NCBI GenBank assembly: GCA_008360955.1
Contig: LUCM01007929.1
Span: 39,794 to 103,793 of the forward strand
Reading direction: 5' to 3'
From: Fasciolopsis buskii
Taxonomy: Eukaryota > Platyhelminthes > Trematoda > Plagiorchiida > Fasciolidae
Length of the DNA stretch: 64,000 bases
Below, piece after piece: positions 28,101 through 64,000 of this stretch (positions are counted from its first letter, which is position 1; every line of letters begins with the position of its first letter). The translations under genes and the position numbers were made by a program. The notes beneath the pieces were generated by a model. The model ran no database searches and was not told the origin of the DNA. It saw only the letters and a list, made by a program, of their open reading frames with translations.

Positions 28101-31100
28101 GTTTACGTTGCAACCGGTTTCTCATAGCTATGTCAGTCTGATTGCGTGTCGCATTCATATTGCAGACATAAATCGATTGAACAAGCTCATTCTACTCGAA
28201 ACTGATAAAAGATGATCGCCCCAACATTCATTCGTCCCACGAATCGCTGGTCCTTCCTTCCGAAATTCTAAGCTGTGTTATGACCAATGTTGCTTATTGG
28301 CTTTACTCAAAATTTCTACATTGGCTGTAATTCCGCTCTTTCCTATAAGTACTCATTTAGTGTACAATCCCTCGGTTTTACGTACGACAATTTCGTTCAG
28401 CTCAGTCCGGCCGTATTTCTCTCGAATTCTATCCTCTAATTTTCTCATGCGGCATGGCAACGCGTGGACATTTTTTACATGTCACATACATGACGATAGT
28501 GGACGAGCATGTATCGTGGCCACTGAGGCTCACTACACAAGGAAGAAAGCCGGCAACTCTGATCTTAAAACGTAGGGGCATAGAACCGCACAAGGTCCCA
28601 ATAGGCCAGATGTGATAACAAATCTGGCGATAGGGACTCTCCCTCTACCACCGAAGTGATCGATAGATCTGATAATCAAACCTCTAACTTTGCGAGGTTG
28701 CTTTCGCTCCTGACAACAATAATACGGGTTCGGCGAGTCGCTATTCATTTCAGAGTATTATAATTAATCTTTCAGAGATCGTACCTTGCACAAACAATCA
28801 ATAGTTATTCCCTTTCTGCCTCGGCTCTCTTGGTAAACATTCGTATCTTTCTGACTAAGGGTGATGTTCTCTCTGTCAAGTCGTAATGGATACGAAAAAG
28901 AGACCACCTTGACTCGGAATACTACACAATATCGATGTTTCTCACGTGAGCACAATGTAGCACATGCTTTGTTTGCGAAACAGTCAGTTTACTGCGTTAA
29001 ATTTGCAGCCTCGGTCACAAACCCTGCCACTATCGACTGCTAACTAACTAATCTGGATATTTGTTTCCCTCTCCCCGACCATATTCTTTATTCCCGTATT
29101 ACGAGAACTTGTGTGCCATCAGCCTGTAAATTATTGGCAAAGGCAGTGCGCGTTAGTATCGTCTTGTGTAGCTATGGTGTTGATTATTTCACCAATATCA
29201 CATACACAGCTTGGCAAACAACACAAACTGTGACCATAGGATATTTTCGCTGCTTATCAATTTGAGAAGTATGATCAGTTTGTTCCCAAGTAGTAAATGC
29301 ACATCTGTCCCGATATCACTAACAGAGCAAGTTACAATCTGTAAACACCCGGTTCGTCCACTGTCGGTATTTTTTTCTTTATATTATTCATTGATTGAGC
29401 TTAAAAATACATTTGCTGACTTTCTCCGGGCCGGCAAACTTATGAATCATTGTAAGCCTTTATTGTTCACAAAACATTCTCTCGCACAAGGGCGATAGCC
29501 TAGTGTACACTACTAGTGTTCCTGTTCTCATTTTGCCTATCGATTGACCTCCCGTTAGGTTTTTCTGTTCTCACCCATCATCCCCTCCCGGTTTTCGCTA
29601 TTATTGTCCTATTTTCATCCAATGTTTCTCCATGACTACCTTTTGTATTCCGGTCAGAATGGACCATTTTTTGTTGAATGGTTCTTAGTCATTTAGCGAA
29701 CGTCTATCGTGCCTTAGTCTCATGGTCTCTTTTTTCGTTGCTTGTGATCTACATAGTCTCCAAATTCAATAGGACGTGGATTGTTAACATGGAGTTCAAA
29801 GTTTCCATCTCTATTCTTTCTGTTTTCATCCGGTTCCCATGACATACCTCTTGTTCATTAACTAACTGGCTTTTAATGATCTCATAAGTCATAGTTTCGT
29901 GCTTGCTGTCTACCGAGCGTTCTCCTCTGTGAGACCGAACTACTCGACTCATAACCGTTTGAATCGTCGATAACATTGCTACCAATGACCTGTTTTATTG
30001 ACTTGTCATTGTCATTGAATTGAGATGGTTTGTATTTCAGTCCTACTCTGCAGCTGAATTTAAGCGAAATCGATTTTTTTATCGTTGTTCGACCTGCTTC
30101 GGTCGACTAGGAAGTTTCGTGAAACGTCTGCGTGATGTTTCATGGTCATTCTATTGAGTAACTTTCAATTTAGTTCATTTTATGTTGCGTCGTTACGCTT
30201 CGTGGTCAACTTTAAGATTTATCAACTTATTTTTTTGTTTTCTGACAACCCTACGCGAGCACAGTGGAACTTTTGAAGTTTCCATAGTTACCAACTCCAT
30301 GTTTCCAACGTCGATTGTCCTGAGTTGCATTCCGATACTTCCTCTGTTTAGTGTTTAGCATGTTATTTAGCTTGATCCGTATTATTTTTTTATTTTATCA
30401 CTGGACACTTCGAAATCGGCGATGTCAGGTTGCTGCGATCGAATTACGAGCTCCGGGACAGGTGATAATCGAGAGTCAGAATTTTCAACTCTTCCTCCTG
30501 TGTTCTTGTCATTCTTATCTGCTTTGGAATAACTACAGGCATGACTGGTATCAGTGTTTGTGCGCGCTCTCTCGCACTCTCTGCCTTCACCTTCCAGGAG
30601 CCAGTTGAACTGTGTGATTAGTGCATTTCCATAGAGTGATGCAAATAAATGACCATATGAAATAATAAAATACCAGATCATTTCAAACTGAAGTTGTTGT
30701 AAACTGACTCTCTAAGATAATGTTATATCCGGGCAAAAAAGCAGGTTTTTCAAAGGTACCAAGTTCCTGGTGATCTTCTGTCAGTTTTCCAAAACGCAAG
30801 GTATGTGGCTGTCTTTTTGCGCAGTAAGATCTCTAATGAATATTAATGGCTTGCAGACTGTTGGAGTGTTCTGGATTAGATTGCATTTGCAATGCTTTCA
30901 CTCGGTATTTCTAGTTTCTAAGGTTACCCAATTAAATTTGAAATAATCGTAACATTTTAGCACTCAGCAAAATCGGAATTCAGGTATTCTCCACAGGATG
31001 TGTGGGCGCAGGTTCTCACTAGCTTGCTTCGCATTTGATATCTATGTATAGATCCCACTATTGGCTGGGAGTGGTATGTGGAATTGATGTTTTCTATGCT

Positions 31101-34100
31101 TGGCTGACTGCCCTTCGGACTCAACCTTTCGCACACAAATCGCAGGTCCTCTGGACACCCTTACAGTCGGGAAACACCAAACTCGAGTTTCACTCATCGG
31201 TAATGTATATCCTCCATCGCATCTAATTTTTCAACCCGAGCTTTGCAACTGGAATGCGTGTATCACTTCACCTACTCCCATCCAACCCACTCAGAATTGT
31301 CGAGTTAAAATTGTTCACGTCATCTTCAGTGACTGCCAGCAGTGTGATGGAAGATATGCATCACTGCTAAGCTCTAATAAGAACAAAACTCGAGTCTGAT
31401 GCTTCCCGACTGCAAGGTTTTTTCGAGGTGAAATGTGCTGTACCAGGGGCAGTCAGCCAAGTATAGAAAACATCAACCCCACACACTACTTCCAAGTAAT
31501 TACGATCTCCACATATAGGAATCAGAAGTTGCGCCGTGGTAGGAGTTGTACTAAACGGTACTGAACCATTTGTACATGTAATCGAAAGTTTTTTGATTTC
31601 TACAGTCCATTCGTATCCATACACCAATGCGTGAATAAACATCAAGAAGAAATTATGAGTGCAGACAGTTATCGCTATTCGAATTAGCCCACCGCATTAG
31701 TCAAAGTATAGCTTTGAAGTAAGCAAGTTCGATCTAAGAAACTAGTAAACCATTTGTTCAACGATGAAGTGCTCATTTAGTCGGCGACTAATGGGCGTAA
31801 TGCTGACCATCATTCATCTGTTCCGAGGGGAATGAATTTACCTAGTTTATTTGCGTCTCTGTTATTAATGCGAGACCTACTATTTGCCAGTGCTAGAATT
31901 ACGTAAAAATAAAGCAAAATATGGATTATAAGTGAAAGGGAAGCAAGACCTGTTAAGTCCCAGAGACTACCAAAAACTTCCTCACAATTTCAAATTTGTC
32001 CTCTGTCGAGGGCGAACACGCAGCTACTCCGGACTTATCCCTTAACCTAGATAGATATCATGTACATTTTCGCACACATAAATGGAACCTCGCTCGAAGA
32101 TCATTAATTCCTCTGTTTTTCGGACCTGTCTCTTCTGACTAACCAGCTTCATTCGTTTTCCCTTCATAGGAATTTCCCAAGCTGCTCAGCACAACTGTAA
32201 CAACCGCTAACACCAGTTGCCTGGATTCCGCGATTTCCCGTGAGCTAATGGTATCGATTGCTTTATGTTAGCGGTAGGAGGTCATACGATTCACGAAATT
32301 ATGAATCATGCGGCATCAACGCTCAAATCACCATTAAGAAACCATAGGAGCATTTGACAACCGTTTCATCTTTGTTGGGAGTAGTCATTCATATTATGCG
32401 TTGAGGTTTAGCGGACCGTTGTGTCTGCACAATAACGTAATGTATGAGGACCTCGACCCCCAGTCGTTCGTTCGGAATTCGCGTCCAAGTTCGGGGAAGG
32501 CGCTCATGCACCGTTAATGATTCTTAACAAGAGTGCAAGAGCTGTCCAGTACTTCCATGGTCTTCTAATTATAAGTTGGGCGTTGGTACACGGCATGACC
32601 AATAATTTCGCGATCACTTAATTCGTTGTCTTGGCCTTGTGTGATGCATTCATCATTGATGGTTGACAGTCTGAGATGTCCTTGTTCCATTTAATGAGGG
32701 AAACTATAGGTCCTCGACTTTCCTAATCTTACTGCTCCCGACTGCGGACTTAAGGGGTTCGCATCCTGACCCTTGGTTTCCTATCCATATTCGGTCTCTG
32801 TTTTTTGAACGACTGAGTGCACCCCTCCGCAATTAAAGTCACTAAGTCATGTTCCAGTTGACCTCGTTCAAGCAGAAGCTACCTTGTCTCATTTGTGTGT
32901 GATTTTGCTCCAGACGGGTCCGTTGCGTTCATCTTCGTCATTGGAATTGCATGTTGACAATACCTAGTGCGCTTCGATCTCATACGATTATGTTGCATAA
33001 AACCATTTACTCCTGTGGGTTTTGGCCACCACCCGCCCGCTAGTCACAGTCCAAACGTGATTTCATAAATTCACCAGAGAACACTCGTCTTATGTTCAAT
33101 TTCTTTCAATAGCTCATTGGTGTTACGCTTCCATCATAATAAGGTAAGTTTTATCTATCGAGTGGTTGCCGAGAGAAATACCATTTTGTGTGTGCATCAG
33201 ACAGACCAAAGCGCCTAACTTGTATGTGCTCCATTTTTGTTTCCCTTGATTCCTACAGTTATGAAATATTTCCTCGATCTATCTCTGTCAGTCCATTTTT
33301 ACCATCGGTTACCATTAAATCTCATGATGTACTATCATTCTCCCCGTTCTATCATTGCATTTTGTTTCCCAATCACTATGTGCTTGAATATTAAAACTGA
33401 CTTGATCACGTGAAGCGGTTCGAGATCTGACGCTTTAACTTCTACTCGCCTCTGCCGGGCGTGATTGCTGCTGACATAGTTTCGCCGTCCCAAAATTTGT
33501 TATGTTCATGCAAATTTCTCCCAGAAGTGAATAAACGCCTCTGTTCGTTAACCGCTTACATATTCGAGAATTCAGTACAGTGAGATTTAGTTTGGTTTTG
33601 AGTGGCGGACGCCGTGGACAGACTGTAATCATAAACTCTAAGGGATCTTTAGTGCAGTAGTATCACTCTGGTTAGAATATACGTGAAAAATTTCCGGAGT
33701 GAGAGACTAACTAACGTCTTCTGGCTCTTGTTCCAGATGACGTCTGTCACCTGTGCACGATCGCTTGTTACCTGCATAATAATGAAAAGTTAGTTTTAGG
33801 ATTATTGATCAAACAGTTCGTACGCATTTTGGGTGGTGCGCCACTAACCCAGTGTATTTTATCTCGTTAAACACGGATGGATTACAGCCAGTTGGTTCAG
33901 TTGGTAATGGGACTCTTCTCCCACGTCGCACTTTTTATTTTCCGAATTTCGGTTATTTATATAGGTGATTTGCCTTCAGATTGAAATCTGTCGCCCCCCC
34001 CCCGCCGATGACTGGCAGCTGTTCACTAGCATGACGTCTCCTTTCAGCAATCCGTAGACGGTCGAAGTGATAGTCGGTTGAAGCGAATCCATTATTTCAC

Positions 34101-40100: not shown

Positions 40101-43100
40101 CATTTTTTATGGAATTTAGCTCTCTTTTTAGTTTTCCAGATCCCTAGGAATCGAGACTTTATGCACTAGGGAACTAATTAGCCCAGTGGACTGGATTCAC
40201 TGAGTTATTATTCCGGATGATGTGATGTTTGCATTACACATCTATTAGCGCGCAAAGATGTGGTAACTGACCGCTGGATTCTTTGATCGTCTAGTCATCT
40301 TCAATTTATCATCAGCTGCTTCAATTCCGAACTTAATTTTTACATTGAATTTATCCGTTGGTGGTGAATGGCTCTCAAACTGTTGAAGTCATTGTGTTGT
40401 TCAGACTCAGTGAATATCCATTAAAGATACGGTCTGGATATACATGTGCATAATTGGCCCTACGACGATGTTATTGGTCAGACATTTATGAGAATGAGAA
40501 TGAGGTAGCAAAATACAATAAGGACCCTTGATAGGTTCTCAGGATTTTGATAACGATCCAATTTTGTTTGCGAGTGTTTTCACTGACTGGGTAAACTTTA
40601 GTCACAATACGCATGCGTTCCGTACGCACATTGCAATAATATTGGATTCAACATGCTTCCCACCAGTCTCTCTTCCAACTCACCGTTCGACGGCAAGTTC
40701 CTCGATCGAACTGACGTTTCTTCCAGTTAAGATTGACATTAGAAGCATTCTGTGGAGCCGCACTTGAAAGTGTATTAATTTCAGTGAAACACGACGTCTT
40801 TGTCAAATGCACAAAATCATGATCAGTTGAACGTCATCAATTGGTGTGCGGGATTGGCTAGTGACATTGCCCCAGTTTCGGGCTTCCTCGTCGATATTCA
40901 ACTTTTTCATCCTGGTTGTGCCGTTTTGTATCCCTGCATGGTAAATCTCAGCCTTGTTGCATCTTTTCTGGCTTTGGTTTTACCCGTTCACCGCTATCCA
41001 GCGTTGCAATCTACTAAAAATACATTGAACTTGTTTCTTTGGCACGAATTTATGTGCAAATCATTTGTCATCGGTTTTGTGGCCAAAAAGGAAAAACCGC
41101 CTGCAAGGAAGTGGGAGAAAGAAATACTGTGGAGAATTCGACACATGATCAATCTGCTTGGCAGCAGGTTTTGCCTGCGACTCTAGATTGGTTATCCACC
41201 CAAGATACTCGATTGCTTTGTAGTCGCGGGGTCTAATGGGACAAAGCTAGCTCTCGAAATTTAAGGATGCAAATAAAATCAGACGTCACATGCAACCTTG
41301 AGTGGCAGCAAGCCTTCCGACGGATCGTGAAAACCGATGGTTTAAGAAATGGCACTAACACCTACTCCAAGACCAGTCAAAGACTGTGCTAGCCTATGCG
41401 CGGCACCGGTACGCAGCTAACCAAAGTTGGCGAAACAATATGCGATAGTGGTGGGGATCCTCGTCTTGACGACCAGCCAAGGCTTGACTGCTGGGCTGAT
41501 TACTTTAAAGGCATTTCAGCGAGTCGTACGGTGATGTAGTCATATTGACAGGAATAAGTGTACATCAGTGGCAGGCATAACTTGATACCCCAACGGAATT
41601 GGAAGGGATGTCAAACGCTCAATTACTGGAGCGGGGAAATGAGTCCGGTATCAGTGAGCTCCCCTTAGATCGGTTCAAGCAGGATGAAGGGGCCTTGGTA
41701 CTAGCTTTTGCCTCTTTGCCCCTTGACATTTGGAACGAGGACTGCATCCCGTTTTCATCGCGGCATCACCGGCCGTGCCCATCCTAAAGAATGGAAAACG
41801 CAGTGACTGTAGCAACCATCTTGGATTTAGTTTAATTCCGGTAGCTACGAAAATCTTAGCTCCGAAACTGCTGCTCCCTTTGACATTGGTTCGTGAGAGT
41901 AACGTGCGCAAACGACAGGTCGGATTTAGCCCACATTTCCATTCTCCGACAGTTACTCGAAACACGCGGCACACAGTCGCCCTATAATTGCAATTTTTTG
42001 GCTTGAAAGGTGCATTCGATTCATTCGACCAGACAGCGCTATTCATTGAAAGGATATGTAAGCGAAGTTTGTTAACTTTCTGTGAGCATTGCACTCGCAT
42101 AGATCTGGTCACTCGAATGTTTGTATGCGGTGAAGAATTAAGTCTATTCGAAACAAATTGTGCTGCTCGACAGCGCTCCCACCCTCCAATTTTTGTTTAA
42201 ATTCGGCATCCACGACTTAATGGTAGATGCTTTAGGAGGTCTATAGGATGTAGGCGTCTAATTGTTAAATGCAGAGAAACGGTGCAACCTAGATTATGCA
42301 AACAACGGTGTATGTTTTTCTTAATCTGCGGAACATGTGGAACGTGTACTAGACAGACTCGCGAGCAGTGTAGATCTAATTGGTATATACTTCCCACCAA
42401 AGTTTCAATTGCTGCTACAGAACTGGACATCAATAGCTACCAGTCTATTATTCGATACGAAGAGAACTAAACAGTGTCGACTGTTTCGCTTACCTTGATA
42501 TCTACTTGACTAAAGATGGTAGCCCAGAAATAAGAGTGACCACGCTTACATTCGGGCCTCGAAAGGGACATGTTGAACTGAAGCACTTTTGGCGTCGGCT
42601 TGATATTTCGTTGAAACTAAAAGGTCGTGTAATGTGTCGCAGTGCGGTCGATTGAGTTGTGTTGTTCCGAAACATAACGCTTTACGTGCTTGGAAGCGTT
42701 TTGTCACCGACGATTGCTTGGTATCCCTAGGATTGGACGCAGTGGCCTAGTGCGTAATGTGCTAATGGACCAAGTGTTTGGCGTCGGTTGTGGGAATATT
42801 CTATCAGAACATACAGAACTTGATAGACTTCGTTGGTTGCGTTACGTTTTGCGGACACTCGCCTGTCATACCACGCCTCGTTTTCCATTCCCACGGAGTA
42901 GAATACGCTACATGGAGGTCAACGGAAAATATGGAGAAGTAGGACGGAAAAATGTCCAGTGTATTTAAGTGAAATTGGTGTATTGTACTGTGTGGACTTT
43001 TGCTCACAGAAACAATGTCGCATTTCAATCAAAAATCTTGAGGGCAAAAATAATATAGGAAAAAGAATCTATACTCACTACCTTGTAAAATGTGAAAACA

Positions 43101-46100
43101 ACTCTTCGAGAAATAATCAGAGCACATTATGATAGGTTGCCTAGGAATTCGGCTAAAACACGGTCACGGCTTGTCAAAATGCGTGCTAAATATGGAACAG
43201 TAGAGTTCCTATAGATAGTGATTCTAGAGGGTATGGAGTGAAAAGCGGATCGTGTAGAAGTATGTGAGCGGCAGTTTGAAAGATCGTTGTGCAGTGGATG
43301 AGTGGGATCTAAAAGAATTTTGTGAGCAAATTTCTCACATGTTGCTAAGTGCTGATCATATAGATTTCGGGACAATTCAGTTAGTGGCATGAAGGACACA
43401 GGGCCAATAATTGGTAGCCCCCGGCGAAGAATTTTAAAGTCTTTTCTAAGTAAACCTGGATACATAACTGGAGAACAGTAAAGAAGGACTAGAAAAACAT
43501 TGGTATACAAATCGGGAGATGGTGCTTTGTTTCATCTTGTAGTGTCAAAGCTTCCTGATTTGAAATGACAACCGTCGGAGAGTTTTCACACAGGTAAAAA
43601 TGTGAGTAGTCTACTTCCGATTTTTATCAATAGTAACTCCTAGATATTTCACAGAATCGACTCTAGTAAGTGTTTTTGAGTTGTTGGAAGACGTTTCAGG
43701 TGGGTTGTAGTCCGAAAACTCTGTCAACCATTTAGCTGGAAACACTGAAAAAAATGACGATGAAGTGTGAACAGTAACTATCATGCCGTCGTTTTCTGTC
43801 GAGTCAGAATAATTGAGGAAAGCTTGTTTGTACAGTTGGACTCTATTTTCCGTTGACTGCTACCAAGTCCTCGTTTTCCTTTCCCCTCGGTGTGGGGTCT
43901 ACTTCCTGTTCATCCTGCGTATCCATTCTTTTTGTTGCAACGTGGTGAAGAAGGCAGTAGTCAATGAGGCTTGCCATGCTATTTAATGCTAAAAGGTGAT
44001 GATAATATCGGTTGTTCATTGGGATCCATGGTTCGTCAGTGGATTGTGTACTACCCGGTTGCCCAAGTCAAAACGGAGTTAACCTAACTCTGAGCCTTTA
44101 GGCCAAACGGCTTACCTACAAGGTGTTAGGATTACCTGAGAGTCTCGAATCCACTGAATGCTCAGTTTGCACACGCTTTTATGAGACTAATTATCCTGGG
44201 TCCTCAATGTACTCCTTTGTCACAGATTGCGATGAACGTAGTTCTTTTGTACGCCGCCCTATCTGTGGGCCGACTGTCTAAGGTGAGCTAACCCGGTGGA
44301 GAGCGCCGAGCATTCGGCTGCATTCTAATACTTTTGTGAAAACATCTGTGTGACCAGAGGCCATAGTGTGGGGTTTCCTTACCAGAGGCTATTTCAGATG
44401 CGGATTTCTTTGATTCCACTACTAAGAGATAGAACAACCTTTTGCTGACCAGATAGTTTATTGTATGATTGAATGCAGGCCTTGAGCGATCGTGATCGAT
44501 GTGCATAAATCGGCAAATCCAGAGGCGCTTACCATGTGACAGGTTGCTAGACAGTTCCCGCTCGTAAGCAATTTGCTTGTTTGTCTGCGTGCGCACATGC
44601 ATTTTGTAACTGTCCGTTCGTTCACGAGGTCATTTATCAGCACTTCGAGGGCCTTTCGGGACGAGTAGCCCACTCGAACCCTGAGCCACTCACCACCAAC
44701 CGTATTGTTGCTTTTTGGACTCGACGTCTTGTTAACATGTCACACTTTCCAGTGATTTATCCGCTCTCGTTCCCCGGTGATGCCGCGTTCAGTGAGATTC
44801 AGTCACGTCCAGTAAATCCATTCCCTATTGTTGTGCTTCAACACTCGTCCAGTACGTGGAACATATCAGTTGTTTAACTGGGCCTTTGGTTATTTTTTGA
44901 ACAAACGATCTTACACGTTGATCGGGTAGAGAAAACTATGCAGCAGGGTATGCATGGATAAGAACTGGTGTAAACATGCTGAATACCGAGAGAGGAATCT
45001 GTAGTTTATCACTCTTCGAGCGTTAGTTGTGAAGGCAGGATCATTTATTTTTTAATTGTCCGTTCCCGCATTCTTTTTCGATTTATAACCGTCTCATGTT
45101 TAATGTTTCTGCTCCACTATACATCAGCCACCCCGTTCGCTTCCCCCATACTTTATTCCTATCATAGATACTATCATACATTTTGGTACGGAACTGTCTA
45201 GGGATATTCCGCCGTGCGCATAGTATCTTGTTTGCCTGGTTGGGCGACATCTCGTTGGAAGTAAGTTTGAACTTCGCTGCCCGTTATTATTGATTGATTC
45301 AGGTGTTGTCCCATGTCGATCGTAGATCCTGGCAATTGTACTTATTTTCATGCTCATCACTTTGGACTGGTTCGTCCCAATAGGTATTCGCTGTACTGCA
45401 AACACTTTATATGATATAGATTTACTGTTTGAAAACATCTGGCCTAACGGAATCGAGGTGTGATGTTTGTGACAAAACAGAGTTTTTATTCTGGTAGGGT
45501 TAAATTACTCATCTTTTGGTATTAATTAAAATCTGTCGGTCTCACCATATCACAGGCGAAATCACATTGTTTAACTGAGGAACGGTTATATGTGAAATTG
45601 TTTGGCTAATTTATTTCATTCCTAAACCGTCGTTAACCTTGCACAGATGTGCTCTGATTTTGGTTACTATCCCACAGCCCGTTACATAGAAGTGAATGAG
45701 GAAAATTGAAAGAGCATCCGTGAAGGAATATTTAAAAAGAATTATGTGAGAAGGGAACGATTTCAAATGCAAGAATCCCACTGACTGCAACAGTTAGCCA
45801 TATTTTTCATTATCTTCGACCGTCACGTGTGAGGACCTCGTGGGCTTCGGTAATCTAAGTTGGTCCACTCAGGATAGTTCACATGCCGAGGTTTCCGCAC
45901 TTCTTTACCAAGTCACCGACCGACTATCTATACCTGTCCATACCTGGCCATCTCAACCTGCTTCGGACAAAACTTGAGCTGAGGACGTTGACTTGCGGGC
46001 ATGTACAACTCATGCCAAAACTGTTTCAACCAATTTAGATTCGGTGCTTCTGAAGATTGAATCCTTAGATCCAGTACCTTGCTCCTAGTCGCTGAATTCC

Positions 46101-49100: not shown

Positions 49101-52100
49101 CCAAATGAGAGATAATGAGCCTCTTAGACGGGTGTGGAACCTTGTGCTTAGGTTTCTTCCAGATCGTCGCTTACGCTGCTTTGGCCATGTTCTTCACAGG
49201 CCGGAGACGGATTTCCCGAAGAGGGGCTCACTACTGTCGCTATGTTCAGCGTAGAAATTCCCCTTTGGTGGTCAATTGAAAACATTAGATAGCACTATTA
49301 CAGTGGACATGGGTCGCTTAGGCCTTCGGTCGGTTTTCAGTATGTGCGGCTGGCAACTGGATTTTGCGATATGCAGACCTCCATTTCAGTCGCAACGCAT
49401 AGACGGCTGCATTCAGAGACATCCAAAAAGTCGCTTATTCTCTCGCAGGAGCTATTGGCAAAAAAGTAAGAGTTGATGTAAGTCAGACGGGGCCATCGGC
49501 AAATGAGCTCTAACCTGAACAGACCTATACAAATCGTTTGATTATAACTAATAAACGAAAACAGCCGTATTGACCTGACAGAGGCCATTTTAATCGTCCT
49601 AGTTTGACTGATCGGGGTGCGATCAAACTTAAATCAAGACGACTGACTGGAGCTAGTAGCTGCAAAACGAGGTTCTGAAATACTGGGAACGAACAATTTC
49701 GGACAACCAAACTGGGCAAACAAAAGAGCCGCATCACCGCATATTATGGAAAGTATGGAAGGTAGGCTTATTATACTATTTAGCTGTAAAGCCTTCCTCA
49801 GTATTAAGCACCTACCAGAGCGATAAACCTAATCAAGTTTTGCACCAACTGTGGCGCACGGTAACCATGTTTCGTGAAACCAAACCCAAAACGTCCCAAG
49901 GCCTAACCGCTTTGGAAGATTTTACTGAAATGGGGCATGCAGTGATCTTAGGCGTCTTCATCCTTCCGTTAGAAAATGCCTGGAGTTACTGTATCGAATT
50001 ATGAACACAGAAAAGACCTATCGCACATTAGTCAACGCAAAAACTAAAATTTAGGGCAACTTTCGAGAAGTCCCCATATCACTTCATGTTGTTATTCAAC
50101 AAGAACTAAGGAGTAGCGGCATGAACAGGCACATATATATAAGATATAAGTACTATCCGGACAGGTGGACAAAATCCCCCGGAAGCACACGACCGGTTTC
50201 GTGGTTACCGCCGTTCGTGAGATATGCGTACCTAGATACTCTCCCGTTCGAACATTCCCAGACATATGCACTCCGAAATGGAGTGTCTCCGGAATCTAAT
50301 TTGTATCGTCAAGAGAGTATGTTCCTGCTAATGCTCCCACTCCTAAGTTCTGGTTGAATAGCAACGTGAAGTGATTGTATTGTGTAGACTTTTGCGTACA
50401 AAATTATTGCAGCACTTCCGTCAAAAATCATGAGGGCAAAAATAATATAGGAAAAAGAATCTATACTCACTACCTTGTAAAGTGTGAAAACAACTCATCG
50501 AGAAATAATCAAAGCACATTATGATAGGTTGCTTAGGAATTCGGCTAAAACACGGTCACGGCTTGTCAAAATGCGTGCTAAATATGGAACAGTAGAGTTC
50601 CTATAGATAGTGATTCTAGAGGGTATGGAGTGAAAAGCGGATCGTGTAGAAGTATGTGAGCGGCAGTTTGAAAGATCGTTGTGCAGTGGATGAGTGGGAT
50701 CTAAAAGAATTTTGTGAGCAAATTTCTCACATGTTGCTAAGTGCTGATCATATAGATTTCGGGACAATTCAGTTAGTGGCATGAAGGACACAGGGCCAAT
50801 AATTGGTAGCCCCCGGCGAAGAATTTTAAAGTCTTTTCTAAGTAAACCTGGATACATAACTGGAGAACAGTAAAGAAGAACTAGAAAAACATTGGTATAC
50901 AAATCGGGAGATGGTGCTTTGTTTCATCTTGTAGTGTCAAAGCTTCCTGATTTGAAATGACAACCGTCGGAGAGTTTTCACACAGGTAAAAATGTGAGTA
51001 GTCTACTTCCGACTTTTATCATGTCAGTTTGCTTTTAAATCAAATGGGTCCACTTTGAACGCCATCGCCTTCCCCATTCACCACATTTGTACAACCTTAA
51101 ACGCATCGTGAAATTTGTGCGTTGCGCCTTTCTACAGTATTCCTCGGCATTTGTTTCGGTCCCACGGTCTCTTCTACTTCACAAACTGGAAACATTTGGT
51201 TTTCCCAGGACTTTATTAGCATGACTGTCTGATTACTTTACTAACCGAACCCAGTGCACATGAATGGACGGTAAAACTTCAAAACTGTTGACTAAGGAAT
51301 CAGATGTGCTTCAGGGCGCTGTTCTTTCATCGTTCTTCTTCTCTACTTACATCAGCGACTTATCAATTAACGATCCCTGTCATCTAATTAAATATGCTGA
51401 TGATGTTGTCCGCTCTCGAGACGTTTCGAACAACGATGATTTTGAAAGTTTCTACAACAACCTATCTCCTGTTTACGATTTCTCTGCACGAGCTGGTTTA
51501 AATCTCAACATATCTAAATGTTTCAAATGTCTGTTCTCTCTCTCTCTGTCAGCCTACTCATCCGAAACGTCTTCCATTAAAGTCTGGGAATGTTCGAACG
51601 GGAGAGTATCTAGGTACGCATATCTCACGAACGGCGGTAACCACGAAACCGGTCGTGTGCTTCCGGGGGATTTTGTCCACCTGTCCGGATAGTACTTATA
51701 TCTAATATATATGTGCCTGTTCATGCCGCTACTCTTTAGTTCTTGTTGAATAACAACATGAAGTGATATGGGGACTTCTCGAAAGTTGCCCTAAATTTTA
51801 GTTTTTGCGTTGACTAATGTGCGATAGGTCTTTTCTGTGTTCATAATTCGATACAGTAACTCCAGGCACTTTCTAACGGAAGGATGAAGACGCCTAAGAT
51901 CACTGCATGCCCCATTTCAGTAAAATCTTCCAAAGCGGTTAGGCCTTGGGACGTTTTGGGTTTGGTTTCACGAAGGATGATTAGCACAATCTCTTTCGCC
52001 AATATATTTGTCTGTCCGGTGTTTCTTGCAGTCTCCTGTTGTTTCGTTTTTTTTGTTCGTCGCTTACGTTGGGCCTGTTCCTGCCCAACGCATGTCATGC

Positions 52101-52709
52101 GATTCCTCGTATTCCCCGATGTAATTTTTTTTTCAGTCACGACCGATTTAAATAGTAGATTTGCCGCTGATAAGCGCGTCGTGGACGTTTCGCTTGTCTT
52201 TTACTTATTTCATTGATTACATTACCTTGTACATCATTTTTAGGAATTGGGCCGCGGCTAACAGATGGGCTGCGTTGTAGGGGAGTTGACCGAGGGTAGG
52301 AGGATTCAAACTGGCGACCCTCAGCTCCAGACGCCATGATTTTGTCTGCTTAACCGTGGCCAGTCGATTTTTTCATGTCGTTATCGGCCAAGCATTTCGT
52401 TTTTCATTTTGATTACTCTTTACGATTGATTTCCGTTTTTCCTCCCATTAGCTGTTCATTGCGCAACACCACATATGGCTTTCCGCGGACGGTAATGGCA
52501 TACTTGTCCTGTTACCTGGATATCCATTGCTAAATTTGGCGCTCATCTCATTCGTGTTTGTCTGTGTATGTCACGAAGTGCACCAGCTGACACGCCGACT
52601 TCACCGTTTTCTGGTACCTGACGGAGCGCTTCAGGCAATACGTAATTTACTTCTGATTGGTGTGATTTTACACGGCATCACTCATTCAAGTTGGCGTTTT
52701 TCCGGATAA
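3733..52709 (+). CDS. CASD1: CASD1 ortholog (Cas1p-family O-acetyltransferase), split gene, 5' end outside window
   Basis: Nine exons in conserved order spell out the membrane part of CASD1. In vertebrates this Golgi protein transfers acetyl groups from acetyl-CoA to CMP-sialic acid; its N-terminal SGNH domain is catalytic and the C-terminal part is a bundle of membrane spans. The exons seen here start at the residues just before the first span after the SGNH domain and end at the stop codon. About 815 residues are visible. That exceeds the matching human part because two loops are expanded. Introns are 0.2 to 19 kb or more and are filled with decayed retroelements. The SGNH exons, promoter and start codon are not in the window. 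Known for the family: function and topology. Inferred: orthology, from colinear matches to the human protein recalled from memory. Confidence 0.88.
3858..5300. other. Intron of CASD1, possible missing microexon
   Basis: A phase mismatch between exons a and b requires a short coding piece somewhere in 3858-7510. Around 3970-4010 one frame encodes a short hydrophobic run after a CTCCTCAG that resembles the human span, but its phase does not fit, so it is not called. Otherwise AT-rich and unrecognised. Confidence 0.35.
5330..5730 (+). repeat. Two diverged copies of the repeat found in the 50-kb inverted-repeat arms
   Basis: 5364-5436 (CGATCGGTTCCGTACTTACTG and onward to the GTTCAAACATCC block) and 5600-5690 (ATCGGTTTCGCGGTTATTGC and onward) both resemble 50190-50255 (GACCGGTTTCGTGGTTACCG, ATATGCGTACC, CCGTTCGAACATTCC). 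This suggests a dispersed repeat family. Identity is only moderate and element ends are unclear. Confidence 0.45.
5810..7020 (-). mobile_element. Jockey/CR1-type LINE, RT and C-terminus, split by a SINE
   Basis: On the minus strand the order is [20 protein letters not shown] (near 6960, RT motif before the catalytic box), then [18 protein letters not shown] (near 6470), [12 protein letters not shown] and [20 protein letters not shown] (6400-6280). After the SINE comes a C-terminal block near 6040-5890 ([18 protein letters not shown]). These are standard landmarks of a non-LTR RT and its C-terminal tail. Frameshifts separate the blocks. The FADD box region itself is degraded in this copy. Confidence 0.75.
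6085..6272 (+). mobile_element. tRNA-derived SINE, copy 1 (inside the LINE)
   Basis: It begins with a tRNA-like head: an A-box-like GTGGTCAAGTGGATAAGG and a B-box-like GGTTCGATTCCTC about 35 bases later. A body shared with three other copies follows (TTGGCCGCGACCCTCTTCCTGG, AAATGATGTACATC) and the A-rich tail GGAAGTAAAAATATAG. RNA polymerase III would be expected to transcribe an intact copy. It sits inside the LINE at 5810-7020, so it inserted later than that LINE. Confidence 0.8.
7121..7158. repeat. (TA)n microsatellite
   Basis: About 19 uninterrupted TA units, with a shorter AT-rich run at 7053-7081 just upstream. Confidence 0.95.
7511..7733 (+). CDS. CASD1: CASD1 exon b: basic and Ser/Thr-rich loop plus membrane span ending in CDR
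   Basis: The acceptor follows a strong C/T tract (…CTTTTGATAG) and the donor is GTACGT. The product starts with a basic stretch ([12 protein letters not shown]), continues through a Ser/Thr-rich loop, and ends in the span [16 protein letters not shown]. The human counterpart is FCKLGLIMAYFYMCDR. The last two bases (CG) combine with the first T of the exon at 10072 to restore the Arg codon, a clean phase match that supports both junctions. The 5' end needs one base from the preceding exon, which exon a as drawn does not supply. Confidence 0.87.
7734..9640. other. Intron of CASD1, nothing recognised
   Basis: Short frames at 8056-8265, 8127-8369 and 8273-8458 overlap on both strands and look like noise. 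No repeat family was recognised. Confidence 0.4.
9660..9905 (+). mobile_element. LINE 3' tail shared with 49480-49690
   Basis: Blocks such as GTTTGATTATGACTAA, TTGATTAGCGGGGCGAGATA and GAGACGACCGACTGA recur in order at 49535-49655 as GTTTGATTATAACTAA, TTGACTGATCGGGGTGCGAT and AAGACGACTGACTGGA. There the sequence follows RTE-like coding, so this is probably the 3' UTR of the same family. No coding part is left here. Confidence 0.55.
10072..10180 (+). CDS. CASD1: CASD1 exon c: membrane span, ends in TKE
   Basis: The acceptor is TCTCTTTTTCAG and the donor GTATGC. After the split Arg codon the frame reads [10 protein letters not shown], then the span [17 protein letters not shown], then SGPTKE. 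Human CASD1 has NLFMKENK, a hydrophobic span, and NENTKE at identical spacing. Phase at the 3' end is 0 and joins directly to 11470. The open frame that runs on past the donor to 10330 is intron read-through. Confidence 0.92.
10181..11469. other. Intron of CASD1; small perfect hairpin at 10674-10703
   Basis: The only structure seen is a 10-bp perfect stem (ACGAGCAGAG with CTCTGCTCGT) around a 10-base loop. No coding or repeat signal otherwise. Confidence 0.4.
11470..11559 (+). CDS. CASD1: CASD1 exon d: conserved EWKGWMQ box
   Basis: The acceptor is TTTTCATTATAG and the donor GTACGT. The exon is exactly 30 codons, phase 0 at both ends. It contains [15 protein letters not shown], against DEWKGWMQLVILIYH in human, one of the best conserved stretches of the Cas1p acyltransferase family. 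The last residues (FTGSYR) take the place of human ISGAS. The 150-codon frame that begins inside this exon in another frame (11483-11935) is a shadow and is not coding. Confidence 0.94.
11560..13560. other. Intron of CASD1, nothing recognised
   Basis: No frame or repeat was identified. The 150-codon frame overlapping its start is an out-of-frame shadow of exon d. Confidence 0.4.
13570..13725 (+). mobile_element. tRNA-derived SINE, copy 4 (head lost)
   Basis: It retains the B-box region and body of the SINE family: ACGAATCGTCGCACCGCTGG, CTCCCTAGTTG, GGCAACGACCCACTTATTG, then the tail GGAAGTAAGAAATC. The A-box half is missing or too decayed to see. Confidence 0.6.
13940..15265 (+). mobile_element. 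RTE-like LINE with endonuclease end and C-terminus but RT deleted
   Basis: 13967-14236 encodes the end of the APE-type endonuclease ([42 protein letters not shown]). 14230-14840 encodes the linker before the RT ([32 protein letters not shown], then [13 protein letters not shown]). At about 14838 it jumps straight to the post-RT C-terminus ([15 protein letters not shown], then [18 protein letters not shown] and [17 protein letters not shown] up to 15200). Roughly 1.2-1.5 kb of RT is absent compared with the copy at 41240. This is a non-autonomous internally deleted copy, still moderately open. Confidence 0.82.
15385..15625 (-). mobile_element. RTE-like LINE, endonuclease piece (inverted relative to neighbours)
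   Basis: Minus strand reads [20 protein letters not shown] then [13 protein letters not shown] and VVARDFKV. These are the YAPT and GDFN-type regions of an APE-like endonuclease. It abuts, head to head, a plus-strand RT piece starting near 15640. Confidence 0.72.
15640..16510 (+). mobile_element. RTE-like LINE, reverse transcriptase piece
   Basis: The plus strand reads [20 protein letters not shown] (15690-15760), which is RT motif QxCPLSPFLFN, and then [14 protein letters not shown] (15822-15870), the YADD-type catalytic box. After a degraded stretch it resumes at 16220-16460 with the later blocks ([14 protein letters not shown] in place of a FCYLGSYIS motif, then [14 protein letters not shown] in shifted frame). 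Stops and frameshifts make it inactive. Confidence 0.72.
17210..17640 (+). mobile_element. RTE-like LINE, 3' end
   Basis: It carries the C-terminal coding tail (GGTAGAGGTTAACAGATGAC, TGGGGTTCAAAAGATCTCTC, AACCAGTTGGTCGGAGACAA) and the family 3' UTR (GGCTACTACGACATTC, CAGCCGCATGTAACAG, GTCGTTTAACGTTAAAC). The same blocks occur at 380-690 and 43710-44020. Confidence 0.72.
17641..19638. other. Intron of CASD1, nothing recognised
   Basis: Frames at 17985-18245, 18802-19062 and 19068-19292 match no known family and lack plausible splice context. Confidence 0.4.
19639..19764 (+). CDS. CASD1: CASD1 exon e: AYLF…GFGHFHYFW span
   Basis: The acceptor is CATACATACAG and the donor GTAAGT. The exon is 42 codons in phase 0. 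It reads [19 protein letters not shown], where human has VLVAAYLFQTGYGHFSYFW. The His, the aromatics and the spacing from the EWKGWMQ box (20 residues between the YH of exon d and YLF) match human exactly. That excludes another exon between 11559 and 19639. The intron before it (8.1 kb) holds the cluster of RTE fragments. Confidence 0.94.
19765..22870. other. Intron of CASD1, nothing recognised
   Basis: Exons e and f already join in phase, so no exon is expected here. A CAG…GTGAGT-bounded block at about 21154-21227 looks exon-like but has no homology support. Confidence 0.4.
22880..24560 (-). mobile_element. Penelope-like element with RT and GIY-YIG endonuclease remnants
   Basis: Reading the minus strand from 24290: [16 protein letters not shown] (the PLE GLPKxHKxGxPLRPI motif), [20 protein letters not shown] (LFTNVPL motif), [16 protein letters not shown], then [19 protein letters not shown] in place of the YVDDIF block, and [12 protein letters not shown] with [13 protein letters not shown]. 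At 23354-23082 the endonuclease reads [20 protein letters not shown] followed by [11 protein letters not shown], a GIY-YIG core. C-terminal traces continue to about 22880. Frameshifts and stops show it is inactive. The order RT then GIY-YIG is that of a canonical Penelope-like element. Confidence 0.85.
24728..25617 (+). CDS. CASD1: CASD1 exon f: [14 protein letters not shown] span plus long lineage-specific loop
   Basis: The acceptor follows CCTCTTCCTTTACAG and the donor is GTAGGT, leaving two bases (GG). The first 46 codons match human closely: [20 protein letters not shown] and then [17 protein letters not shown]. After PRV a loop of roughly 215 residues follows, rich in Ser, Thr, Arg and His, where human has about 15. 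The exon ends in a hydrophobic stretch ([20 protein letters not shown]) matching the next human span. The loop stays open for about 650 bases, so it is probably translated, but a retained intron within the exon cannot be ruled out. Another frame (25173-25532) is also open across part of it. Confidence 0.9.
25794..26328 (+). CDS. CASD1: CASD1 exon g: [14 protein letters not shown] box plus Ser/Thr-rich loop
   Basis: The acceptor is TTTTTTTTGTTTCAG and the donor GTAAGC. The first T completes the Gly codon left by exon f. The product reads PQRHLFKL, then an acidic patch [17 protein letters not shown], then [20 protein letters not shown]; human has RWRLDRYVVFHGMLFAFIY. A loop of about 75 extra residues ([20 protein letters not shown] and onward) follows, then the span [17 protein letters not shown]. 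The frame stays open past the donor to 26406 and meets an AATAAA at 26381, so a truncated isoform by intronic polyadenylation is conceivable. Confidence 0.92.
26381..26386 (+). promoter_or_regulatory. AATAAA 53 bases inside the intron after exon g
   Basis: The hexamer lies in TTTCAATAAAGAATACC just after the exon g donor, in a frame that stays open to 26406. It could allow premature cleavage and polyadenylation, or be chance. Confidence 0.3.
26510..26705 (+). mobile_element. tRNA-derived SINE, copy 2 (best preserved)
   Basis: Head CGGTGGTCAAGCGGATAAGG (A-box-like) and GCGGGTTCAAATCCTCC (B-box-like) 33 bases apart. The arms GACCGGCGGTGG and CCACCGCCGGTC pair as a stem, as in a tRNA-like fold. 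The body TTGGCCGCGGTGCCGTTCCTGG, AAATGATGTGCACC and the tail GGAAGTAAAAGATG match the other copies. It lies in the intron about 180 bases after exon g. Confidence 0.82.
26710..31030. other. Intron of CASD1; weak shared repeat at 28545-28640
   Basis: 28545-28640 (GCCGGCAACTCTGATC, CCCAATAGGCCAGATGTGAT) resembles 13870-13955 (GCCGGCAACGAGGACTC, CCCAATAGATCAGACGTGGT), hinting at another dispersed repeat. Nothing else was recognised. Confidence 0.35.
31041..31192 (+). repeat. Imperfect inverted repeat at 31 kb, left arm
   Basis: Pairs with 31383-31517 in reverse complement. Shared blocks include TTGATGTTTTCTATGCTTGG against TTGATGTTTTCTATACTTGG, CTGACTGCCC, and CAGTCGGGAAACACCA against CAGTCGGGAAGCATCA. 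The arms are about 75-80% alike and separated by about 190 bases. Confidence 0.75.
31383..31517 (-). repeat. Imperfect inverted repeat at 31 kb, right arm
   Basis: Reverse-complement partner of 31041-31192. The level of divergence suggests an old foldback element or two inverted copies of one repeat. Both arms give similar peptides when read in opposite directions ([12 protein letters not shown] and [12 protein letters not shown]), but I do not recognise the peptide. Confidence 0.75.
31520..34060. other. Intron of CASD1, nothing recognised
   Basis: A C(10) run at 33996-34005 and a tRNA-like phrase near 33892 were seen but not supported as elements. Confidence 0.35.
34165..34300 (+). mobile_element. 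Possible Penelope-like element 3' tail
   Basis: The phrase CCACAGTGGTCGAAACGTTC, followed by an AATAAA-bearing end at 34281, resembles the end of Penelope-like elements in flatworms, whose 3' regions carry a similar GTGG.CGAAACGTT block. No coding part is identifiable, so this is tentative. Confidence 0.35.
34300..41230. other. Intron of CASD1, nothing recognised; candidate region for a missing exon
   Basis: One missing CASD1 segment (about 24 residues) should lie between 26328 and 45168. A block starting after CTCATATTTAG at 36374 opens in phase 0 with [20 protein letters not shown]. That has the W…EC…H order of the human sequence but no good in-phase donor, so it is not called. The 128-codon frame at 40800-41186 is unrecognised. 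Confidence 0.35.
41240..44030 (+). mobile_element. RTE-like LINE, linker to 3' UTR, split by a CR1-like LINE
   Basis: It covers the pre-RT linker ([19 protein letters not shown] near 41430, [14 protein letters not shown] near 41695), RT start ([20 protein letters not shown], 41785-41845), the block [14 protein letters not shown] (42003-42045), degraded later RT, then [14 protein letters not shown] and the C-terminus [20 protein letters not shown] and [14 protein letters not shown] (42820-42860). After the interruption at 42975-43700 the coding tail (GTCAACCATTTAGCTGGAAA) and 3' UTR resume. Many frameshifts; long dead. Confidence 0.85.
42975..43700 (-). mobile_element. CR1-like LINE copy 1, RT C-terminus and 3' UTR
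   Basis: Minus strand from 43700: [20 protein letters not shown] and VTIDKN (the KYLGV motif after the RT core), [25 protein letters not shown], then, one frame over, [39 protein letters not shown] and [20 protein letters not shown] to a stop near 43127. A TAG replaces the expected Trp after VTIDKN, and a frameshift lies near 43500. The element interrupts the RTE copy at 41240-44030. 43032-43627 is about 99% identical to 50430-51018. Confidence 0.85.
44031..45167. other. Intron of CASD1, nothing recognised
   Basis: Frames at 44288-44602 (minus) and 44581-44877 (plus) overlap each other and match no family. No exon is expected immediately upstream of 45168 apart from the missing short segment. 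Confidence 0.35.
45168..45260 (+). CDS. CASD1: CASD1 exon h: LVRN…[10 protein letters not shown]
   Basis: The acceptor lies after CCCCCATACTTTATTCCTATCATAG, a long pyrimidine-rich tract, and the donor is GTAAGT. The exon is exactly 31 codons in phase 0. It reads [14 protein letters not shown], then [17 protein letters not shown]. Human has ILAFILIRNIPGYARSVYSS and FAWFGKISLE. It joins in phase to LFIAQHHIW at 52452. It was hidden because no ATG-initiated frame covers it; the opposite strand carries a longer meaningless frame (45124-45438). About 24 residues that precede it in human (the SIWASSC…LHP region) were not found between 26328 and here. Confidence 0.93.
45870..46720 (-). mobile_element. 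RTE-like LINE, reverse transcriptase remnant
   Basis: Minus strand near 46570-46260: [14 protein letters not shown] (decayed PFLFNFVID), [15 protein letters not shown] (the LEYADDIVLL catalytic box with the YADD now GND), [15 protein letters not shown], then [20 protein letters not shown] (the VDxFxYLGSxIS motif). Divergent remains of the next blocks continue to about 45900. The catalytic Asp pair is destroyed. Confidence 0.68.
46721..48100. other. Intron of CASD1, nothing recognised
   Basis: Frames at 47097-47426 and 47663-47887 were read without a match. Confidence 0.35.
48108..48182 (-). mobile_element. CR1-like LINE, 3' UTR scrap
   Basis: GTATTGTTTTGTATAGACTT and ATAATGTTGCATTTCAGTCA match the 3' end of the CR1-like copies at 42970-43030 and 50370-50425. 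No coding part is present. Confidence 0.55.
48231..48253. repeat. (CA)n microsatellite
   Basis: Eleven to twelve CA units. A GT-rich counterpart lies at 48491-48508, and TTGGGCTTG (48286) pairs with CAAGCCCAA (48477), so the whole 48231-48510 stretch could fold back imperfectly. Confidence 0.9.
49100..49740 (+). mobile_element. RTE-like LINE, C-terminus and 3' UTR
   Basis: It encodes [20 protein letters not shown] (49155-49215), the RLRWFGHVLR motif of RTE-type elements, then [20 protein letters not shown] (49270-49325) and a tail with [10 protein letters not shown] 3' UTR shared with 9660-9905 follows. Only a few disruptions affect this last part. Confidence 0.7.
49871..50263 (+). repeat. 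393-bp inverted repeat, left arm
   Basis: It is the reverse complement of 51582-51974 with about three mismatches in 393 bases, counted by eye (near 49976, 50108 and 50142). Outer ends share TTCGTG/CACGAA; inner ends share CCCAGAC/GTCTGGG. Both arms are exactly the same length. Part of the arm resembles old repeats at 5364-5690. Confidence 0.93.
50370..51019 (-). mobile_element. CR1-like LINE copy 2, RT C-terminus and 3' UTR (3' segment)
   Basis: Same coding content, same in-frame TAG and same frameshift as copy 1 at 42975-43700. Only about six differences were counted across roughly 595 bases. Homology ends abruptly at 51019; the rest of the element continues beyond it in the opposite orientation. 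It lies inside the loop of the 393-bp inverted repeat. Confidence 0.87.
51240..51580 (+). mobile_element. CR1-like LINE copy 2, RT core (inverted 5' segment)
   Basis: The plus strand reads [20 protein letters not shown] (RT motif VPQGSVLSP), [20 protein letters not shown] (YADD catalytic box intact) and [20 protein letters not shown], ending at YSSETSS. The protein would continue into [10 protein letters not shown], the part found at the far end of copy 1. It is therefore the same element as 50370-51019 but flipped, as expected for a twin-primed 5' inversion. The 142-codon frame runs on into the repeat arm. Confidence 0.85.
51582..51974 (-). repeat. 393-bp inverted repeat, right arm
   Basis: Reverse-complement partner of 49871-50263. 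It starts one base after the LINE RT segment ends, so the LINE and the repeat abut directly on this side. Confidence 0.93.
52215..52375 (-). mobile_element. tRNA-derived SINE, copy 3
   Basis: Minus strand begins GGCCACGGTTAAGCAGACAA (A-box-like), has CGCCAGTTTGAATCCTCC (B-box-like), then TTAGCCGCGGCCCAATTCCT and AAATGATGTACAAGG. It matches the SINEs at 6085 and 26510. It ends only about 80 bases before the terminal CASD1 exon at 52452. Confidence 0.75.
52452..52709 (+). CDS. CASD1: CASD1 terminal exon: [16 protein letters not shown] to stop
   Basis: The acceptor is TTTTTCCTCCCATTAG. The frame reads [28 protein letters not shown], then the span [19 protein letters not shown] and a C-terminal span ending WRFSG and a TAA stop at 52707-52709. 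Human has LFICQYHIWLAADTRGILVL and FIFVCVAHEISQIT. The HIW motif and the VCxxHE motif are hallmarks of the family. No clear AATAAA lies within the next kilobase; the first are near 53848 and 54399, inside or beyond a Gypsy fragment, so the 3' UTR end is unknown. Confidence 0.95.
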
Positions 52710-63854: not shown

Positions 63855-64000
63855 ATTTCGTTGGAAAATGATCGATCGTGCTACTGGAGTCTTCATCATC
63901 CCCTACTCACTTGTTACCCCCCTCCTTAAATTTCGTTGGAAAATGATCGATCGTGCTACTGGAGTCTTCATCATCCCCTACTCACTTGTTACCCCCCTCC
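63855..64000 (+). repeat. Direct tandem repeat, 75-bp unit, runs off the window
   Basis: 63855-63929 is repeated from 63930 to the last base without any mismatch over the 71 bases visible. The unit starts ATTTCGTTGGAAAATGATCG and ends in ACCCCCCTCCTTAA. It may be the start of a satellite array, a recent duplication, or an assembly overlap. Confidence 0.93.

What the first reader, a model, noticed from the sequence alone, without database searches (positions are those of the whole stretch)
49871..51974. Near-perfect 393-bp inverted repeat with a 1.3-kb loop
Two arms of equal length (393 bases) differ at about three positions while everything around is heavily decayed. Either this is a recent foldback or TIR-type element, or an inverted duplication or gene conversion event, or an assembly artefact. 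RNA from it would form a long hairpin and could feed small-RNA pathways. Parts of the arm exist as old dispersed copies near 5.4-5.7 kb, so the arm comes from a repeat family.
Basis: seen in the sequence. Interest (0 to 1): 0.75.

Follow-up and report, generated by a model that had tools for sequence, protein, structure and literature searches.

The report
Young inverted copy beside old LINE
A 393-base stretch of old, partly repetitive DNA has been copied back to front to the far side of an old broken retrotransposon, most likely by a DNA-repair slip; it is not a mobile element of its own and is a fairly ordinary event.

Summary
The inverted repeat is real: strict arms 49871-50263 and 51582-51974 (393 bases, 3 mismatches), extendable to 402 bases with 6, loop 1,318 bases. 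It does not look like a foldback or TIR element: among 40 scored hits in the 703-Mb assembly, only the two arms themselves match the whole arm; the other 38 cover its inner third. That third belongs to an old, palindromic, roughly 186-base repeat. All 38 other scored copies run on across the inner edge of the LEFT arm, where the right arm stops, so the left arm is the source and the right arm the copy. Most of the loop (50374-51580) is one LINE copy in two opposite-facing pieces, the layout left by twin priming; its 5' piece carries about 9% private changes, flat over codon positions. The right arm begins within two bases of the LINE's 5' end, yet the arms differ by only 0.8%, so the copying, or the last homogenisation of the arms, is much younger than the LINE. 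Best reading: a recent local template switch during repair or replication. Main rival: an older inverted repeat re-levelled by gene conversion. Ordinary in kind; the layout and nearby young local copies are mildly interesting.

The parts
49862..50263 (+). Left arm, the source copy (strict part 49871-50263)
   Evidence: 38 of 38 other scored copies of the repeat in its inner part continue past 50263; anchored extension 83 vs maximum 52 in 500 random stretches
51582..51983 (-). Right arm, the inverted copy (strict part 51582-51974)
   Evidence: extension across its inner edge is 10, near the random median of 7; 0 of 6 loci align more than 2 bases past 51582
50133..50318 (+). Old imperfectly palindromic repeat of about 186 bases, straddling the inner edge of the left arm
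   Evidence: 38 other scored copies at 73-78% identity, of 1,094 candidates
50078..50375 (.). Imperfect palindrome at the source site: 50078-50163 against 50286-50375, 73%
   Evidence: 67 of 90 columns identical, 0 of 500 shuffles reach the score
50374..51021 (-). 3' piece of the LINE in the loop: C-terminal coding part and 3' end
   Evidence: 97% identical to copy A at 42982-43629
51022..51580 (+). 5' piece of the same LINE, inverted: reverse transcriptase part
   Evidence: RVT_1 E = 1.4e-4, 22.1 bits, below Pfam's cut-off of 29.6; P0001 59% over 105 aa; pieces face the same way in 11 of 11 fetched relatives
42982..43717 (-). Copy A, another copy of the LINE's 3' end 7.4 kb away; shares a young tract (43142-43629) with 50534-51021
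   Evidence: 2 differences in 488 bases, 18 in the other 160; upper end about 43702-43718 judged from relatives

Best explanation
A short, local, inverted duplication made by DNA-templated copying. An old LINE in the 5'-inverted (twin-priming) layout had inserted in the right half of an older palindromic repeat. Much later a break or stalled fork at or near the LINE's 5' junction led a DNA end to anneal in the wrong orientation to the left flank, copy about 400 bases there (49862-50263) and be rejoined, leaving the copy as 51582-51983. Shown: the left arm is in its ancestral setting; the LINE's two pieces face each other; the LINE is far older than the arms' divergence; no other full copy of the arm among the scored hits. 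Inferred: the break, the direction of synthesis, the rejoining. The result is an inverted repeat with no function shown.
For: Polarity: 38 of 38 other scored repeat copies cross the left inner edge; 5 of 6 loci cross left in the same orientation, 0 of 6 cross right by more than 2 bases; window copy at 5329-5487. Age: LINE 5' piece 50 private changes in 560, codon positions 10:15:11, arms 3 in 393, Fisher p = 3.5e-9. Sole full pair among 40 scored hits. Sharp edges. Other sharply bounded young local pairs occur: 536-base direct and 141-base inverted on C1191, 1,417-base direct on C244. Scale fits human inverted duplications, median 284 bp (PMC12350158, passages).
Against: The right arm starts within two bases of the LINE's 5' end, and the two LINE pieces lack only about 51 bases between them, so a later break must have fallen close to the original LINE end: an unexplained coincidence. 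The inner junction shows no clear microhomology (by eye), and similarity at the outer edge is reached by 4.0% of 20,000 random pairs. One sequence exchange nearby (A and the loop LINE) looks like gene conversion rather than insertion.
Confidence: 0.5

Rival explanations
1. Old inverted repeat re-levelled by gene conversion. The inverted copy arose when the LINE inserted (foldback synthesis while the 5' end was resolved), or is the rest of the older palindrome beyond the LINE; recent arm-to-arm conversion made it near-identical again.
For: The right arm abuts the LINE's 5' end. The palindrome at the source runs to 50375, exactly where the LINE begins, so its other half is expected on the far side. 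The outermost 9 bases hold 3 of the 6 mismatches, as an unconverted edge would. Copy A and the loop LINE show a conversion-like tract: 2 differences in 488 bases, 18 in 160, other copies at most 84%. Foldback inversions at L1 insertions are known: 3 alone and 1 with an internal inversion (PMC10191854, section 11).
Against: No older similarity was found outside the arms; conversion would have to reach both ends almost completely; foldbacks at L1 insertions were rare and shorter (52-220 bp). The inner junction offers no clear pairing of the arm's end with the LINE RNA (by eye).
Confidence: 0.3
2. Assembly artefact: the right arm was put in by mis-assembly or gap filling.
For: The assembly is fragmented (6,974 contigs) and the adjoining 20 kb holds 427 N; no reads could be examined.
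Against: Three scattered mismatches in 393; other young local pairs differ by 0.8-3.5%, not 0; the copy abuts a LINE end.
Confidence: 0.08
3. A foldback or TIR-type mobile element, with the arms as its terminal repeats.
For: Long near-identical inverted arms with a loop; part of the arm is a dispersed palindromic repeat.
Against: No second full arm among 40 scored hits; the loop is mostly a LINE, which has its own copies elsewhere; the repeat family runs across the arm's inner edge.
Confidence: 0.02

Closest known systems
Small inverted duplications in human genomes (PMC12350158; passages seen)
   Same: Size (their median 284 bp), inverted, local, thought to arise by replication-based copying
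   Different: There most junctions show 1-15 bp microhomology; here none is clear at the inner junction. The copy here abuts a LINE 5' end
L1 insertions with foldback inversion, with or without twin priming (PMC10191854; section 11 seen)
   Same: Internal inversion of the element plus an inverted copy of flanking DNA at its 5' end
   Different: Theirs are made at insertion and are 52-220 bp; here the copy is 402 bp, comes from the flank at the LINE's 3' end, and its arms are far younger than the LINE
Twin-primed (5'-inverted) LINE insertions (PMC2837659, passages; PMC4245944, abstract, passages and sections 12 and 16)
   Same: Two opposite-facing pieces of one element with a deletion between them
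   Different: No clear target-site duplication here. In the cell assays of PMC4245944 5' inversions came only from human L1 in human cells, apart from one Nimb-2_DR insert; this LINE's clade was not tested
Gene conversion between inverted-repeat arms (recalled, no paper read)
   Same: Near-identical arms of possibly older origin
   Different: No diverged remnant outside the arms, apart from a 9-base edge

Membership tests
Foldback / TIR transposon | Several copies with the same paired arms | tested here: not met
   Among 40 scored hits only this pair is full length (904 candidates, 40 scored)
Foldback / TIR transposon | Target-site duplication just outside the arms | tested here: inconclusive
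   None seen by eye at the outer edges
Twin-primed LINE insertion | 5' piece inverted relative to 3' piece of one element | tested here: met
   Opposite facing here; same facing in 11 of 11 fetched relatives, 11 of the 39 other hits
Twin-primed LINE insertion | Internal deletion at the inversion junction | tested here: met
   49-54 bases lie between the two matches in 10 of 11 relatives, about 30 in one
Twin-primed LINE insertion | Target-site duplication around the whole insert | tested here: inconclusive
   Only TGAT at 50372-50375 and 51978-51981, which would enclose LINE plus right arm; by eye, untested
Templated local inverted duplication | One copy in ancestral context, the other at a new junction | tested here: met
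Templated local inverted duplication | Short microhomology at junctions | tested here: inconclusive
   Inner: none clear. Outer: 7 of 11 bases by eye; as good in 4.0% of 20,000 random pairs
Templated local inverted duplication | Absent at the same site in relatives | not testable with these tools
   No relatives of this genome are held
Gene conversion tract | Young tract inside an older, more diverged repeat pair | tested here: inconclusive
   No similarity beyond the arms; only the 9-base outer edge with 3 mismatches

The most novel reading that the evidence does not exclude
In this genome broken ends at or in old LINE copies are often patched with copies of neighbouring DNA of a few hundred bases, in either orientation. 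Here both the LINE's 3' piece (exchanged with a copy 7.4 kb away) and its far flank (402 bases from the near flank) would have been rewritten by such local patching, possibly in one event: the two tracts are of similar age (2 in 488 and 3 in 393 differences, Fisher p = 0.66).
Probability: 0.15. Interest if true: 0.5.

Novelty: new member of a known kind. Interest (0 to 1): 0.27.

Why it matters
The order of events can be read from one locus: palindromic repeat, then 5'-inverted LINE, then a young inverted copy (or a young re-levelling) at the LINE's 5' junction. If young local copies prove common and concentrated at such junctions, a genome-wide count would test how LINE junctions break and heal. 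Taken alone it is an ordinary structural variant.

Tried and rejected
Rfam scan of the window: 0 matches at gathering scores. A protein search with the LINE's RT piece gave one relative, P0001; one with the C-terminal piece gave none. RT-piece scans of genome contigs and viral contigs found no relative; an exact 40-base arm pattern was absent from viral contigs.

Copying during the LINE's own insertion with no later conversion was my first idea; the age gap speaks against it. The right arm as source is rejected. I at first took C1191:402341-402867 for an old inverted repeat with a young core, because BLAST joined its halves at 69%, and wrote that in notebook entry 2; the sliding comparison shows no clear older similarity outside the core, so I withdraw it. 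A direct alignment of the LINE's RT piece with the DNA upstream of copy A was no better than shuffles (127 of 200 reach it); a 27-base overlap at the expected place was reached by 50 of 2,000 shuffles. The colinearity claim therefore rests, not on copy A.

Not obtained: an own-genome search with the outer part of the arm alone and with the right flank 51984-52180 (not completed). Paper searches. PMC2912911 and PMC10766186 were seen as search listings only. No structure prediction, PDB, Pfam-other-library or search_dna_similar call was made.

Full report
What is there. The window lies in an unnamed 703-Mb assembly of 6,974 contigs (C4669:39794-103793). It carries CAS1-domain exons and LINEs, so it is eukaryotic; from memory its retroelements look like those of flukes, but no call names the organism. 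The inverted repeat is as reported: 393-base strict arms (49871-50263; 51582-51974) with three mismatches, or 402 bases with six, and 1,318 bases between. Outside the arms the two flanks are no more alike than shuffled DNA (326 of 1,000 shuffles reach the score; sliding comparison).

The loop. 50264-50373 is the rest of the palindromic repeat described below. From 50374 to 51580 the loop is one LINE copy in two pieces. 50374-51021 (minus strand) is the 3' end: C-terminal coding part and 3' end. 51022-51580 (plus strand) is reverse transcriptase (RVT_1, E = 1.4e-4, 22.1 bits, below Pfam's cut-off of 29.6; 59% identical to P0001 over 105 aa). In 11 of 11 relatives fetched from the same genome (11 of the 39 other hits) the two pieces face the same way, 49-54 bases apart in ten and about 30 in one. 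Here they face opposite ways, so the copy is 5'-inverted with about 51 bases missing at the junction: the twin-priming layout. I did not test the LINE's clade; 'CR1-like' in my notes is recalled.

The age of the loop. The reverse-transcriptase piece is 83-86% identical to the 39 other scored copies (3,754 candidates, 40 scored). Against the 11 fetched ones it carries 50 private changes in 560 bases (8.9%; the others 5.6-7.0%), spread 10:15:11 over codon positions from 51117 on, as expected of neutral decay after insertion. Two pairs among the 11 are near-identical to each other, which lowers the private counts of those rows. The arms differ by 3 in 393. The contrast has Fisher p = 3.5e-9 and is conservative, because the arm figure sums the changes of both copies.

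Which arm is the source. The inner third of the arm belongs to an old, imperfectly palindromic repeat of about 186 bases (50133-50318). All 38 other scored hits (of 1,094 candidates) are 73-78% identical and continue past 50263, the inner edge of the left arm. In six loci compared with both sides, 5 of 6 cross the left inner edge in the same orientation (the sixth crosses only with an inverted match), and 0 of 6 go more than 2 bases past the right one (some of these loci are also hits). The window's own old copy at 5329-5487 agrees: anchored extension 83 on the left, 10 on the right, maximum 52 and median 7 in 500 random stretches. So the left arm is in its ancestral setting and the right arm was placed against the LINE.

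Uniqueness. With the strict arm as query, 40 hits were scored of 904 candidates. Two are the arms of this locus; the other 38 begin at query position 259 or later, that is, they cover only the inner third. The foldback-element reading fails on this.

How it was made. Family copies read on differently after 51580; one base (51581) is unexplained and the arm begins at 51582. No clear microhomology is visible there. At the outer end 7 of 11 further positions match by eye; the extension score there is equalled by 4.0% of 20,000 random pairs. I favour a recent template switch from a break near the LINE's 5' junction into the left flank. The position at the LINE's very end is the best argument for the rival, an older inverted repeat made at or before LINE insertion and later re-levelled by gene conversion. 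The age gap speaks against a copy made at insertion without later conversion.

Neighbouring young copies. The LINE's 3' piece and copy A, 7.4 kb away, differ by 20 in 648 bases; 18 of these lie in the 160 bases next to the 3' end and 2 in the other 488. The 39 other rows are at most 84% identical (4,853 candidates, 40 scored). So A and this copy probably exchanged sequence recently; the direction is unknown. In 100 kb of contig C1191 there are a 536-base direct pair (97.4%) and a 141-base inverted pair (96.5%), besides a 175-base pair at 93%; in 84 kb of C4669 there are the two pairs described. Between the two stretches, a comparison of about equal size, no pair of 100 bases or more reaches 95% and one reaches 89%. 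Two LINE copies about 20 kb apart on C244 are 99.2% identical over 1,417 bases and not alike outside; two on C1461 are 93.3% over 1,132. Short young local copies therefore recur here. The sample is small: two stretches, 184 kb, one of them chosen because it holds the finding, plus pairs met in passing.

Precedents. Small inverted duplications were the commonest inversion class outside mobile-element insertions in 1,019 humans (277 events, median 284 bp; PMC12350158, passages). Foldback inversions at L1 insertions are known but rare (n = 3, and n = 1 with internal inversion; PMC10191854, section 11). In cell assays 5' inversions came from human L1 in human cells, apart from one Nimb-2_DR insert (PMC4245944, section 12). 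I make no claim that this layout is absent from print.

Function. Nothing here shows one. A transcript across the locus could form a long hairpin, but no expression or small-RNA data were available.

Noticed in passing
window 42982-43629 and 50374-51021: Two LINE 3' ends 7.4 kb apart, 2 differences in 488 bases but 18 in the 160 at the 3' end, while the 39 other scored rows are at most 84% identical: a recent local exchange.
   Followed up: partly
L012 and L013 (contig C244, about 20 kb apart): Two LINE copies 99.2% identical over 1,417 bases and not alike outside; L012 stops short of the family's 3' end.
   Followed up: partly
L048 2361-2501 and 2707-2847 (C1191:402361-402847); L048/L049 C1191:406504-407039 and 411411-411946: A 141-base inverted pair (96.5%, 206 bases apart) and a 536-base direct pair (97.4%), both with fairly sharp edges.
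   Followed up: partly
window 24677-25618 and 25762-26403, + strand: Two open frames matching Cas1_AcylT (E = 2.4e-20, and 1.1e-5 below the cut-off), likely exons of one CAS1-domain gene.
   Followed up: no
window 63855-64000: Nearly two exact copies of a 75-base unit, running to the end of the contig.
   Followed up: no
window 52181-52367, 6103-6270, 26516-26702: A dispersed repeat of about 170 bases at 66-68% (80% between the last two); its look of a tRNA-derived SINE is recalled, not tested.
   Followed up: no
window 31036-31130 and 31430-31524: An older inverted repeat, 95 bases, 72% complementary, 299 bases apart.
   Followed up: no
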